This document shows, in pieces, positions 1 to 39,733 of a stretch of DNA of 52,638 bases. This DNA comes from Patescibacteria group bacterium (GTDB lineage Bacteria > Patescibacteriota > Patescibacteriia > SCPX01), in the NCBI GenBank assembly GCA_004298615.1, contig SCPX01000059.1:1-52638 (forward strand), read 5' to 3'. The stretch's first letter is position 1. Each line of letters opens with the position of its first letter. A program made the translations under genes and the position numbers. The notes below the pieces were generated by a model, which worked only from the letters and a program-made list of their open reading frames with translations, searched no databases and had not been told where the DNA came from.

Positions 1-335
1 TCCAATCCGCTTATCAGTTTTTCCTTTTCCGGCGCTTCAAAAAGAGCCAGAAATTCTTCCGTTGCGTCAATCGTATCAAGAATTAAATTTATCATCTCCC
101 GCCCTTTTTTTGTCCGAAGATACGGCGTTTTGTCTCCAAAAACTTGACTTCTAAGCTGGTATAATATAACTCCAAGAAACGGCGTTATGACAAATTCTTT
201 GTCCATGCCGATACCCCGGATAACCTCATTTTTCTCTTCTTTTAACCTTTCCAAAAGGATTCTCGTAAACGATGGTGAAAACCCATTAATTACATCATTC
301 AGTTCCAATTTTAATTCTTGTTTCAATTCTTCCAT
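1..335 (-). CDS. Hypothetical protein, partial (runs off left edge)
   Basis: Minus-strand ORF from ATG at 333-335 (MEELKQELKLELNDVINGF...) preceded by AGGAGGAT Shine-Dalgarno; open to window edge. Confidence 0.7.
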   Translation of the reverse strand, partial: MEELKQELKLELNDVINGFSPSFTRILLERLKEEKNEVIRGIGMDKEFVITPFLGVILYQLRSQVFGDKTPYLRTKKGREMINLILDTIDATEEFLALFEAPEKEKLISGL

Positions 336-31404: not shown

Positions 31405-33918
31405 CTATAAGCTTGGCCTCTCTTGCATAGTGGCCTCCGGACGGCTGGTTTCGGCCAATTTTGACCGTTCCAGAATTTCCGCGGAAACCTCCGCCCGATC
31501 GCGGCCGTATTTCAATCGGGAAAGCTGTTTTATGACGGAAGCGATCTCCTTGCTTCCTTTGGGCGGCGCGAATGTTGCCATATTGAAAGGCTTGGTCGGA
31601 GCATTGTCAATCAATATGCGGATATAGGCATTGTATTTATCAATATTCAAAAGGTCGTAAGCGGAAATTTCCGGAGCGAATTGTTTTTCCAAAAGCTCGG
31701 TATCGTCAACGCCCACGCGGAAAGCCGCAATCGTACCGACATTGCCGAAGATGGCGTCGCGCACTCTCGTATCATTATTCTGCGATAGCTGGCCGATGTA
31801 TTGATGCGCCATAATCAAATTCAGGCGGTATTTTCTCGCTTCGGCCAAAATTACCGAAATGCTGTCCGTAATGAAATTCTGGAATTCGTCAATGTATAGG
31901 AAAAAATCTTTTCTCTGTTCTTCCGGCATATCGGCTCTCGCCAGCGCCGCCATTTGCAATTTTGAAACAATGATCAATCCCAAAAGATTTGAATTCATTT
32001 CCCCCACTTTGCCTTTTGACAGATTTACCAAAAGAATTTTTTTAGCATCCATTATCTCGCGAAGATTGAAACCGGATTTGGGCTGGCCGATGATATTGCG
32101 CATCATTTCATTTTCCACGAATCGTCCGACTTTTGAAATCAAATACCCGAGCATTTCAGATTTGTGAAAATCCGATGTCTTGGCCATTTCCTTTTCCCAA
32201 AAAGCCCGCACCATCGGATCCGACACTTTCGTCAGCTTGTATTTTTGAAAAGCCGGATCAGTAAAAATGCGCGGCACTTCGGCAATCGTCCCCGGATACT
32301 CTTTATCCGACATAAGCGTGAGCATGGCATTTCGCATATTATGCTCAAACATCGGACCGATCATCGCCGGATCGCTCACCAGCTTGTAGAATATTGAGAT
32401 CATTTCTTGAGACGCGAAATCCATTTCATTGGGAGTATTCGCTTCCAGCATATTGAGCCCCACCGGCCTCTCCAGATCGGACGGATCAAAATAAACCACA
32501 TCCTCGGCTCTCTCTTTGGGGATATTTTCTATAATATCGTCCACCAGACTGCCGTGCGGATCAATTACCGCGACACCATGCCCGTTTCTTATGTCCTGAA
32601 TCGCCATATTGGACAAGAGCACTGATTTCCCGGTACCGGTAGAACCGATGATATACATATGGCGCTGGCGATCCTTTGGTTTGAGGCGAATCACCGAATC
32701 ATCGCCCCGATAGCTGTTTTTTCCGAGCATAATCCCTTCCTGCGGCAAATTGGGCGGCGCCGAAAATTTCTTAGCCAAAAGCCAATTGATATTCGGCGTT
32801 TCAATGGCGTAATGAGGCAGATGAAATATGGATGATAATTCTTCGGTATTCAGAATAAAAGATCGGCGGCGATTGAAAATCCTGTATATAAAATCTCTGA
32901 TCAGCCAATCTTGCCTTCTTTTCTTCTGGCCAAAGCCATTGCCGTATTCGTATTGGGAAAACGGCGCGAAGCTATCCACAATCGTGGCCAGCGCTTCTTT
33001 TGTTTTTTCAATCGTATCGCACGATGCGATGACTCTTATATTGACCTCCATGCCCGCCTTGCTGTTTTTTTCTTCAATCACTTTGACTACTTCCTGTTCC
33101 ATCGGCGTAAGCACATATGTTTTTTCGGCTTGATTTAATTTATCGTCATTTTTCTTGGTCTGTCCGGGAGGAAAGAATATATTTAAAATCTGCACGATGA
33201 AATTTCCGGACGCGAGCCTGAGCGCATCTTGCAATTTTTTCCCCTGATGCATTTGTTGAGCGACGCGCTTGCTCAAATTATGCCAGCCCGGAGGAGCAGT
33301 ACGCACCAAAATTTGAATGGCCGCGCCATTGGGCTCTTCCAATTTGCTAAGGGCTTGGGTGAGGGCGGAGAGCGGATCGCCGTCCAATTTCCGATAAGTC
33401 AGGATCGGAAATATCTGGGGCTTGCTCAAAATCAATTCCGTGCCCAGCACGATTCCGGACGGCGTGAAAATATTATAATCTCCCGCCTCTTCAATGAGAG
33501 CGTGCGGATATTGGGCGTGCAAATGCCTTTCAATGAAATCATTAAGCTTCGGCGGGACCGCCACATAAAAAGATATTTGATTTTTATCCGCCACCAATTC
33601 AAAAGAAATATCGTCTCCCCGGCCGGAAAAAAATGTTTTAATGCCCCGTTCGGGCCAGAGTCCGCCTATTTGCGCGAAAACATTTTCCATTTTCGCAATC
33701 TCGCTTGCCAATTCTTCTTTGGTCATAGCGCCCCTGGTCGATTGATCGGTCGCTGTCCAGCGCGGCAAAGATACGAGAAAAACTTTTTTCTTCAGTCCCT
33801 TGTCGTGCCGAGTGGCCAAATGAAAATAAAAGCGCAAACCGTAAATCAATATTGCGATCAAAATCGGGGTCAAAATTATTGCCGCCGCCATTGGAAAATT
33901 ATCGGAGAATGAAATCAT
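31405..33918 (-). CDS. TraG/VirB4/HerA-type ATPase (type IV secretion/conjugation-like)
   Basis: GSTGTGKSVLLSNMAIQDIRNGHGVAVIDPHGSLVDDI; YIDEFQNFITDSI; N-terminal TM. Confidence 0.88.
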   Translation of the reverse strand: MISFSDNFPMAAAIILTPILIAILIYGLRFYFHLATRHDKGLKKKVFLVSLPRWTATDQSTRGAMTKEELASEIAKMENVFAQIGGLWPERGIKTFFSGRGDDISFELVADKNQISFYVAVPPKLNDFIERHLHAQYPHALIEEAGDYNIFTPSGIVLGTELILSKPQIFPILTYRKLDGDPLSALTQALSKLEEPNGAAIQILVRTAPPGWHNLSKRVAQQMHQGKKLQDALRLASGNFIVQILNIFFPPGQTKKNDDKLNQAEKTYVLTPMEQEVVKVIEEKNSKAGMEVNIRVIASCDTIEKTKEALATIVDSFAPFSQYEYGNGFGQKKRRQDWLIRDFIYRIFNRRRSFILNTEELSSIFHLPHYAIETPNINWLLAKKFSAPPNLPQEGIMLGKNSYRGDDSVIRLKPKDRQRHMYIIGSTGTGKSVLLSNMAIQDIRNGHGVAVIDPHGSLVDDIIENIPKERAEDVVYFDPSDLERPVGLNMLEANTPNEMDFASQEMISIFYKLVSDPAMIGPMFEHNMRNAMLTLMSDKEYPGTIAEVPRIFTDPAFQKYKLTKVSDPMVRAFWEKEMAKTSDFHKSEMLGYLISKVGRFVENEMMRNIIGQPKSGFNLREIMDAKKILLVNLSKGKVGEMNSNLLGLIIVSKLQMAALARADMPEEQRKDFFLYIDEFQNFITDSISVILAEARKYRLNLIMAHQYIGQLSQNNDTRVRDAIFGNVGTIAAFRVGVDDTELLEKQFAPEISAYDLLNIDKYNAYIRILIDNAPTKPFNMATFAPPKGSKEIASVIKQLSRLKYGRDRAEVSAEILERSKLAETSRPEATMQERPSL

Positions 33919-35600: not shown

Positions 35601-36194
35601 TTATCGCAAACGAAAATGATGTTTTAAATCCAAATCAATATCCGTCTCTTTTGCGAGAATAAATCTTATATATGGCCGGAGCCCAAAAACCTCCGCAATA
35701 AAATCAATTTCATCTTTGCAGGCATACGGATAAATAAAAACGCTCTTTTGCATAGAGTAAAATCCCAAATGTTTTAATTTTGCCGCAAGAGCGTTGCGTC
35801 CCCGCTTGAGATCCTCCGGTATGTCAAAAATAACCATTCGCCACGCTCTATCCCAATAATTAGGCTTCTTAATCCTCATCGTCTTTAGATTATACTCAAG
35901 CGCCTTGCGTTTCCCATTTTCAGACAGAATCATAATACCGGTCCCATCGCTTTTTTCTTTATAACTAATCATTTTGGATTGATAAAGTTTTCGTATCGCG
36001 CTATGGAGTGAGCGCCTGTTTATTTCTTCCCACTCCTTTGCCATCCCGCGCATGATGCGAAAATGTTTATTCGGATAACTTGTTAGTCCCAGCGCCAATC
36101 CGCCTATTAAAAGTAAGAGAACCTTCTGCATTATTGGTCCGATTTTCGTGCGCGCCGGAAGCGCAGAATGATTATTTTCTTTATTATTCTTCAT
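35601..36194 (-). CDS. HTH + Cas2/PaaX-C-like protein
   Basis: WRMVIFDIPEDLKRGRNALAAKLKHLGFYSMQKSVFIYPYACKDEIDFI: Cas2-type core preceded by winged-helix-like N-terminus; start trimmed because ORF residues 1-25 translate copy B. Confidence 0.8.
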   Translation of the reverse strand: MKNNKENNHSALPARTKIGPIMQKVLLLLIGGLALGLTSYPNKHFRIMRGMAKEWEEINRRSLHSAIRKLYQSKMISYKEKSDGTGIMILSENGKRKALEYNLKTMRIKKPNYWDRAWRMVIFDIPEDLKRGRNALAAKLKHLGFYSMQKSVFIYPYACKDEIDFIAEVFGLRPYIRFILAKETDIDLDLKHHFRLR

Positions 36195-36216
36195 ATATCC
36201 AATCTTACCACATAAC

Positions 36217-36305
36217 TGCTGTTTTAGCAACGATCGTTTGAATACCCACACTTTTTGGTTAAGTGCCAAAGTGTCGTTATAGCAACGATCGTCGGATAAA
36301 CAGCA
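36217..36305. repeat. Flanking palindrome copy B of Cas2/PaaX-like unit
   Basis: 38 bp arms (36217-36254, 36268-36305), 29/38 matching, 13 nt loop; ACGATCGT core in each arm. Confidence 0.9.
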
Positions 36306-37590: not shown

Positions 37591-38700
37591 TTATATCCCC
37601 GATTTGGTTCGATTGTGATCCTTACATAACATTTGGCAATTCTCTGCAACCGTTTTTCCGCCTTCATGCCAAGGTTTAATATGATCGGCTTCCATTTCGG
37701 AAATATCCCATTGTTTTTTGTCTTTTTTCTGCTTTTTACAAAATGGACAAATGCCATTTTGTCGCTCGTACGCTTCGCGCTTCATTTTGTCTGTAAAGGC
37801 GCGAATTGAAAGGTGTCTTTCTTGCCCGGTCAAAACATACGGATAAATACCGGACTTTTTGGTAACATCTTCGTCTTGCATTAACTCTTTAACTTCGGCT
37901 TCCAGTTTTGTGGCATTTAACTTCTCATTTTTGAATTGGTTGCATAACTCACCCCAACTCACGCTCGCCATTTCTTTTCGATAACTGGGAAAGGTTTTTC
38001 GCACCCAAGCGATTACATCTTGGAAATAATTCCACAGCTCATCAGCTTTTTTGTCGTGCTGATGTTTGGCCATATAATCTTCTATCTTGCCGTCGTTGAT
38101 CCACGAAAGCGCGGTCTCTAAATACTCTTGCCTGATTGGCGAACCACTGACTAATTGTCCGCCGTCGTTTGCCAAAAGATATGCCGCGCAATGTGTTTTG
38201 CTAAACTTTAGTTTCGCGTCGCTCAACCACGGCCCAGTATAGACCGCATTACGGATTTCTTGGTCGGTCAATTTTTCTCCGGCAATGTTAATAATTCTAA
38301 ACCAGTCCAGCCGCTCTTTGTCTGTGCCTTCGCAGAAGTAAATCATCAGTTCATAATCCAAAATCTGTTTTTGTTCTTCGTCGGTTAGATTATGAAAAAA
38401 GCGGTCGTTCAACGAAAAATCGCCATTCACATATTGCCCGATGCTAATAGTGCGCTGTTGGCCGTCCAGTACTTCATAGCCGCCATCTTCTCTGATCATC
38501 CAATACATCACATTCAGCGGAAAGCTGTTTTTGATTGTTTCTATCACGGCATTGCGTTGCTTTTCCTTGTACACAAACTCACGCTGATATTTTGGACGAA
38601 TATCAAGTTTGCCGTCGTAAGCCACAACGCCCTCCTCGGCGCCATCTTTATAGCCAACTATTACTTTGCGGATTGTAATTTTATGCAGATCAATTTTCAT
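37591..38700 (-). CDS. DUF262 + HNH endonuclease (GmrSD-like)
   Basis: YEVLDGQQRTISIGQY DUF262 motif; C-terminal CPFCKKQ...EADHIKPWHEGGKT...NCQMLCKDHNRTK HNH. Confidence 0.85.
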   Translation of the reverse strand: MKIDLHKITIRKVIVGYKDGAEEGVVAYDGKLDIRPKYQREFVYKEKQRNAVIETIKNSFPLNVMYWMIREDGGYEVLDGQQRTISIGQYVNGDFSLNDRFFHNLTDEEQKQILDYELMIYFCEGTDKERLDWFRIINIAGEKLTDQEIRNAVYTGPWLSDAKLKFSKTHCAAYLLANDGGQLVSGSPIRQEYLETALSWINDGKIEDYMAKHQHDKKADELWNYFQDVIAWVRKTFPSYRKEMASVSWGELCNQFKNEKLNATKLEAEVKELMQDEDVTKKSGIYPYVLTGQERHLSIRAFTDKMKREAYERQNGICPFCKKQKKDKKQWDISEMEADHIKPWHEGGKTVAENCQMLCKDHNRTKSGI

Positions 38701-38701
38701 A

Positions 38702-39733
38702 TTATTTTTTAACTTTCTTATTTTTTACAATAATTCTAAAATAGGTATATTTGCCATTTATTGATAAATCTTTATTATCATTGCCTTTTCTAAATCTTAC
38801 AATTTTAAACTGTTCAGGATTATATTTATCGATAAAAGTAATTGGTACGCCGATATATCCAGCATAATCATAAGGAATATCTGTGTATTTGTTTACATTA
38901 ATTGCATCATAATTATCATATTTTGGGTACTCTTCGGGTTTATATTTTTTATAAAGAGTAATGTCTTGCTTATGTTTTTCAACTTCAAGATTTGTAAATC
39001 AACACGATGTTGAAACTCGCGCAATTTTTTTGCCACTTTTGTCAATATGATGAAAATGTTCCCAATCATCTGGCACTACAAAAAACATACCAACATTAAA
39101 ATTGGTGTAGCCTGTGCGAAATTTATCTTCTTTAATTAATTTAAAAATCTCTTTATAAGTTAGAGAATTCGTGTTGCCTATAATCAAAAACTTTTTTTCA
39201 TATTCCACAAGCTGAGCGACGTATTCACGAAATAGAGAAAATGGTGGATTGGTCACGACGATATTTGCCTCCTTTAGTAATTCAATACATTCCTTGCTAC
39301 GAAAATCGCCGTTACCGCGCAGGGAGGTTGCGGTGTTTCTGTCGTGCTTTAACAGATACTCTACATCGTCAATGTTAACTGCGCCGTCGCCGTCGGTATC
39401 CGGTACTTCTTTGATTTCTATTTTAAACGGCTCTTTGCCCGATGGTTTTAGCCCCTCTACTTCAAACAACGGAAGCTGTCCACCGACAATCGGCGATTTT
39501 ACATAACTCGTCGTGATGAGTTTCTTCAATCCAAGCGCATTGAAATTAGCGGCAAAGTATTTGAAAAAATTGCTCTCAAATGGATCATCGCAATTACAAT
39601 AGACAACCTTGCCCCGAAATTGGTCCTTGTAATGTTTAAGTTCGTTTTCAATATCAACAAGCTGGGTATAAAACTCGTCTTTCTTCGCTTGGCTTGCCTT
39701 ATGTAAATTTTTATTTAAAGATTTGGTTTTCAT
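38702..39733 (-). pseudogene. EcoRI-type adenine-specific DNA methyltransferase with one in-frame TGA (38999-39001)
   Basis: NPPF motif (VVTNPPFSLFREYV); frame continues after TGA as FTNLEVEKHKQDITLYKKYKPEEYPKYDNYDAINVNKYTDIPYDYAGYIGVPITFIDKYNPEQF... Confidence 0.8.

What the first reader, a model, noticed from the sequence alone, without database searches (positions are those of the whole stretch)
38702..39733. EcoRI-type methyltransferase with a single in-frame TGA at a position where Trp is expected
The supplied ORF stops at 38999, but the same frame continues 99 codons with a coherent C-terminus (FTNLEVEKHKQDITLYKKY...GVPITFIDKYNPEQF...) to TAA at 38702. The junction reads STSC-TGA-FTNLE; EcoRI-family methyltransferases, as I recall, have a WFTNL-type sequence here, consistent with TGG to TGA. 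Another Trp in this gene uses TGG, and genes here (e.g. fmt, murJ) end in TGA, so a recoded genome is unlikely. Options: recent nonsense mutation, programmed readthrough, or sequencing error.
Basis: partly seen in the sequence, partly recalled or inferred. Interest (0 to 1): 0.65.

Follow-up and report, generated by a model that had tools for sequence, protein, structure and literature searches.

The report
Broken methylase in a modular restriction system
A DNA-methylating enzyme gene in this small bacterial genome is interrupted by one stop codon at a tryptophan found in nearly all its relatives, probably a recent loss-of-function mutation; comparing the relatives suggests that in this family the methylase, not the DNA-cutting partner, chooses which DNA sequence is attacked, which could explain why losing it does not kill the cell.

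Summary
Observation confirmed. Codon 245 of the 343-codon frame 39733..38702 (-) is TGA; both halves match the EcoRI-methylase family, and the site is Trp in all 95 aligned relatives. TGA is a stop here (RF2 gene, one tRNA-Trp with CCA anticodon, no suppressor or Sec tRNA), so recoding is rejected. No relative shares the stop and nothing downstream supports readthrough. Best reading: recent nonsense mutation in the methylase (M); assembly error not excluded. An intact DUF262-HNH nuclease gene (R) starts 1 nt after M.

The wider result is more interesting. Across 96 M-R pairs, M carries two independently exchangeable blocks, T1 (about 200-255, containing the lost Trp) and T2 (about 310-end). 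R identity follows M's constant parts, not T1 or T2: two systems with 95% identical R share 24% of T1. In methylases partnered with R.EcoRI both blocks are kept. So R probably takes its specificity from M, as in Type I or BREX, although PADLOC files the pair as Type II. Loss of M would then be harmless; two other genomes also show broken M with intact R. This guidance is inferred, not shown.

The parts
38702..39733 (-). EcoRI-type adenine methyltransferase gene (M), 343 codons, interrupted by one in-frame TGA
   Evidence: PADLOC MTase_II 4.2e-125 over 2-341 when the stop is read through
38999..39001 (-). in-frame TGA (codon 245), at the first residue of the conserved WFTNL motif
38999..39733 (-). 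truncated ORF, 244 aa: keeps the NPPF motif and most of variable block T1, loses WFTN, the conserved C-terminal part and T2
38969..39136 (-). variable block T1 (codons about 200-255), exchanged as a unit among homologues
38705..38806 (-). variable block T2 (codons 310-343), here of the same class as in EcoRI-partnered methylases (RFRKGNDNKDLSINGK)
37591..38700 (-). intact DUF262 (GmrSD_N) - HNH nuclease gene (R), starting 1 nt after the TAA of M
   Evidence: PF03235 1.8e-16, PF01844 7.9e-9; PADLOC REase_II PDLC03418 1.8e-133 over 1-367; spacing

Best explanation
A recent single-base nonsense mutation (TGG to TGA at an invariant Trp) truncates and very probably inactivates the methyltransferase of a two-gene M-R restriction locus. 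The truncated product lacks the WFTN motif, the conserved C-terminal part and the second variable block, so it should neither recognise nor methylate its site (inferred). The downstream DUF262-HNH nuclease is intact, but its start lies 1 nt after the normal M stop; loss of translational coupling would lower its expression (inferred). In addition, this nuclease most likely has no DNA specificity of its own and needs M to find its target (inferred from comparison), so an intact nuclease without M does not kill the cell.
For: Single lesion, frame and profile continuous across it. Trp invariant in relatives, none with the stop. TGA is a stop here: RF2, tRNA-Trp CCA only, no UCA-anticodon tRNA, best tRNA-Sec hit is a tRNA-Ser (against 23). 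The sequence past the stop still looks constrained: dN 0.105 and 0.12 against dS above 2 relative to L149 and L028. Broken copies recur in this family: G030 and G539 (M and R both broken), G148 and G509 (M broken, R intact). +1, -4 or -11 spacing of M and R recurs widely. R follows M's constant parts, not T1/T2.
Against: Reads were not available, so an assembly error or within-population variant is not excluded. The absence of any second lesion is also what an error would give. No activity data exist. A divergent second EcoRI-type M-R locus in the same genome (C5:50461-51564, about 52% identity) might protect the genome if it shared specificity, another way to tolerate the loss.
Confidence: 0.62

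Rival explanations
1. Assembly or consensus error, or a minority strain variant: the real gene is intact.
For: One base, one lesion, no other decay in M or R; the genome is in 75 contigs, so probably a metagenome bin. The flanking sequence is otherwise conserved.
Against: The other window genes scanned with Pfam show no obvious interruption. Broken copies of this gene are not rare in the group (about 5 among roughly 90 examined), so a real lesion is not improbable a priori.
Confidence: 0.3
2. Programmed or leaky TGA readthrough makes the full-length M at low level.
For: Intact, conserved reading frame after the stop; TGA is the leakiest stop in general (own knowledge).
Against: No relative has a stop at this codon. 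The following base is T, a strong termination context in E. coli (own knowledge). The downstream RNA is hardly more structured than shuffles (z -1.1). No suppressor or Sec tRNA.
Confidence: 0.05
3. The genome reads TGA as Trp (or Gly).
For: Only this one codon.
Against: RF2 present, tRNA-Trp CCA, 10 of 43 window genes end at TGA with short extensions in the other nine, 175 TGG codons in those genes.
Confidence: 0.01
4. R has its own fixed DNA specificity (ordinary Type II), and the variable blocks of M do not set specificity.
For: PADLOC names the pair Type II MTase and REase; no biochemistry was found for this pair.
Against: In methylases partnered with R.EcoRI, T1 stays 60-93% identical and the T2 motif is kept even at 60% R identity, as expected of specificity blocks; in DUF262-partnered systems the same blocks are swapped freely at 80-97% R identity.
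Confidence: 0.25

Closest known systems
EcoRI restriction-modification system (M.EcoRI, PF13651, with R.EcoRI)
   Same: Methylase of the same family; the window's T2 block is of the EcoRI class.
   Different: Partner nuclease is DUF262-HNH, not R.EcoRI; T1 is of another class; T1 and T2 recombine with a constant R, whereas EcoRI-partnered methylases keep both.
Type I restriction-modification (HsdM/S/R)
   Same: Two independently exchangeable recognition blocks with a constant nuclease; cargo genes of RhuM, Fic, Bro-N, T5orf172 and PrrC/RloC-like AAA_13 type between the genes in some relatives; Type I loci are known to carry some such genes (own knowledge).
   Different: No HsdS subunit and no translocase (HsdR) domain; the recognition blocks sit inside the methylase.
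BREX (PglX)
   Same: Recognition domain is part of the methylase, which is needed for both modification and restriction (PMC12707154).
   Different: Two genes only; no BrxC, PglZ or BrxL.
GmrSD / BrxU type IV enzymes (DUF262 + HNH-fold nuclease)
   Same: Nuclease has the DUF262 domain and an HNH domain (PMC4619093, PMC12707154).
   Different: HNH is PF01844 rather than DUF1524; the gene is tied to its own adenine methylase, and nothing points to modified cytosine as target.

Membership tests
EcoRI-type adenine methyltransferase (PF13651) | Match to the family profile over its length | tested here: met
   profile 1-228 and 232-332 by the two halves; PADLOC MTase_II 2-330/332.
EcoRI-type adenine methyltransferase (PF13651) | NPPF catalytic motif | tested here: met
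   Residues 162-165, invariant.
EcoRI-type adenine methyltransferase (PF13651) | Uninterrupted gene making a full-length protein | tested here: not met
   TGA at codon 245: a disrupted member of the family.
Type II restriction-modification | Adjacent M and R genes | tested here: met
Type II restriction-modification | Nuclease recognises the site independently of the methylase | tested here: inconclusive
   Sequence comparison argues against it; no biochemistry.
Type I restriction-modification | Separate HsdS specificity subunit and translocating HsdR | tested here: not met
   Neither is present beside M and R in the window among the genes scanned.
Programmed stop-codon readthrough | Stop conserved among relatives | tested here: not met
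   No relative has it.
Recoded genome (TGA as sense codon) | Loss of RF2 and a UCA-anticodon tRNA | tested here: not met
   RF2 present, tRNA-Trp CCA only.
BREX | PglX with BrxC, PglZ and partners | tested here: not met
   No such genes beside M and R in the window among the genes scanned.

The most novel reading that the evidence does not exclude
EcoRI-type methylases paired with DUF262-HNH nucleases form a two-gene restriction system in which the methylase carries two interchangeable recognition blocks and also directs the nuclease: a minimal system that works like Type I or BREX but is filed as Type II. New specificities arise by swapping either block without changing the nuclease, and loss of the methylase is not lethal.
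Probability: 0.55. Interest if true: 0.7.

Novelty: new variant of a known kind. Interest (0 to 1): 0.45.

Why it matters
The stop codon itself is ordinary gene decay. The family pattern matters more: if the nuclease is guided by the methylase, many systems annotated as Type II belong to a separate, very compact class with combinatorial specificity. Their recognition sites could then be predicted block by block, starting from the EcoRI-class T2 block, and changed by swapping short segments.

Tried and rejected
Recoding and Sec insertion: rejected. Downstream reinitiation making a split enzyme: no ATG/GTG/TTG in frame after the stop. RNA structure for readthrough: none notable. Solved structure of a relative: phmmer found none; the fold search of a confident model (pLDDT 85.6) gave no match at E<=0.001, only weak matches, so the role of Trp245 and the placing of T1/T2 on DNA could not be tested by structure. 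A segment of R that follows T1: none found (partial correlations from -0.15 to 0.09; the first window gave no value). Literature on this M-R pair: nothing found; papers on Trp in M.EcoRI: none useful.

Full report
OBSERVATION. The sequence is as described. On the minus strand a frame opens at ATG 39733 and meets TGA at 39001-38999 after 244 codons, then continues for 98 sense codons to TAA at 38704-38702. Both parts match the same Pfam family, PF13651, at consecutive profile stretches, 1-228 and 232-332. The longest extension past any other TGA stop among the window's main genes is 16 codons. Across relatives the residue at this place is Trp: 95 of 95 other rows in alignment A2, with one divergent viral sequence aligning Thr.

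TGA IS A STOP IN THIS GENOME. An RF2 gene is present. The tRNA set includes one tRNA-Trp with anticodon CCA and no tRNA with a UCA anticodon; the best match to tRNA-Sec is the tRNA-Ser that reads UCA. Ten of 43 main window genes end with TGA. Recoding is therefore rejected.

WHAT KIND OF STOP. No relative has the stop. There is no start codon in frame after it, no notable RNA structure after it (z -1.1), and the next base is T, a good termination context in E. coli (own knowledge). Programmed readthrough is unlikely. The part after the stop is still conserved (dN 0.105 and 0.12 at dS above 2 against L149 and L028), so the stop is recent or an error. Reads would decide. Broken copies of this gene occur elsewhere among the relatives: G030 (16-nt tandem duplication in M, a further stop in M, and a frameshift in R), G539 (M and R both broken), G148 (2-nt loss at nearly the same site as in G030; R intact) and G509 (frameshift in a T run; R intact). 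That is about five of some ninety copies examined, counting this one, so a real lesion is credible. G509 is a run-length change, and I give it less weight.

THE LOCUS. One base after the TAA of M begins an intact 369-codon gene with DUF262 (GmrSD_N) and HNH domains, which PADLOC names a Type II restriction enzyme (1.8e-133). The same pair, with spacing +1 or overlaps of 4 or 11 nt, recurs in many relatives. Coupled translation is thus likely, and the premature stop should also lower expression of R (inferred). The genome has a second, divergent M-R pair on contig C5, with a Bro-N gene between M and R.

TWO EXCHANGEABLE BLOCKS IN M. I compared 96 complete M-R pairs (95 relatives plus the window with its stop read as Trp). 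Identity to the window in residues 201-244 is either high (mostly 66-89%) or low (16-41%), while both flanks are conserved. Over all pairs the T1 identity is two-peaked. A second block, T2, from residue 310 to the end, behaves likewise: L088 and L092 have identical T1 but unrelated T2 with R differing at 6 residues, while L088 and L064 differ in both blocks with R 95% identical. T1 and T2 combine freely: of pairs with T2 at least 70% identical, 38 have different T1 classes and 24 the same; of pairs in one T1 class, 374 have T2 below 45% and 33 at least 60%.

R DOES NOT FOLLOW THE BLOCKS. Pairwise R identity correlates with the constant parts of M (rho 0.72 for residues 7-75, 0.80 for 21-50, 0.63 for 246-311) but weakly with T1 (0.21) and with the T2 window 301-330 (0.12). 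Among 213 pairs with R at least 80% identical, T1 windows are below 45% in 71-72% and the T2 window in 92%; eight windows in the constant parts never are. The insert around residues 76-150 varies too, but less sharply (17-23% of these pairs). No stretch of R follows T1 once overall R identity is taken out. On a tree of R the 11 larger T1 classes need 35 changes (minimum 10, shuffled 59). The correlations treat pairs as independent, which they are not, so they are descriptive; the tree count and the near-identical pairs carry the argument.

CONTROL. Methylases of the same family whose partner is R.EcoRI, an enzyme that recognises its own site, keep T1 at 60-93% and a common T2 motif across Enterobacteria, Staphylococcus, Leuconostoc and Rhodococcus, even where R.EcoRI is only 60% identical (in the Rhodococcus row T2 identity over its longer tail is 38-43%, but the motif is kept). 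The control has five systems. So the blocks behave as specificity determinants when the nuclease has its own specificity, and vary freely when the partner is DUF262-HNH. The window's M has the EcoRI-class T2 with a non-EcoRI T1; three relatives have an EcoRI-like T1 with other T2 blocks.

INTERPRETATION. The simplest reading is that the DUF262-HNH nuclease takes its specificity from M, in a complex or through the mark M leaves. Type I systems and BREX are precedents; in BREX the recognition domain is part of the methylase that is needed for both activities (PMC12707154). Cargo genes between M and R in several relatives (RhuM, AAA_13, Fic, T5orf172, Bro-N) resemble those of Type I loci (own knowledge). 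Under this reading an intact R without M is harmless, which fits the window, G148 and G509. It is not proven: no biochemistry was found, and the position of T1 and T2 on DNA could not be checked because the fold search gave no close solved relative.

VERDICT. Finding confirmed; most likely an ordinary recent nonsense mutation, with assembly error as the main rival. The comparison it led to, a two-block methylase with a constant nuclease, is the part worth following.

Noticed in passing
L008 about 2276 and L162 about 2360 (genomes G030, G148): Two methylase copies from different families are frameshifted at nearly the same place (about codon 70) by different lesions: a 16-nt tandem duplication and a 2-nt shortening of an A-rich run. 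Possibly a mutational hot spot or a phase-variable site.
   Followed up: partly
window 39365-39403 (-), M residues 111-123: EF-hand-like loop DTDGDGAVNIDD in an insert of the methylase; D112, G117 and D123 are nearly invariant in the family, Pfam EF-hand match below cut-off. Possible metal site.
   Followed up: no
L150, L031, L033, L097, L155, L098 (between M and R): Cargo genes between methylase and nuclease: RhuM, AAA_13 (PrrC/RloC-like), Fic, T5orf172, Bro-N; several other loci carry unknown proteins there.
   Followed up: partly
L098:6423-9598 (contig C5 of the window's genome): Second, divergent EcoRI-type M-R locus in the same genome, with a Bro-N gene between M and R.
   Followed up: partly
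L010, L015, L178: Methylases with an EcoRI-like T1 block but different T2 blocks, useful for assigning half-sites to blocks.
   Followed up: partly
window 38702-39733 (-): G+C falls from 38% before the TGA to 24% after it. Many relatives also have a lower G+C 3' end, in line with exchange of the C-terminal block.
   Followed up: partly
window 35601-36269 (-): Protein with a PaaX_M / Cas2-like domain near the restriction locus.
   Followed up: no
window 31405-33918 (-): Large TrwB/TraG-like conjugation-type ATPase.
   Followed up: no
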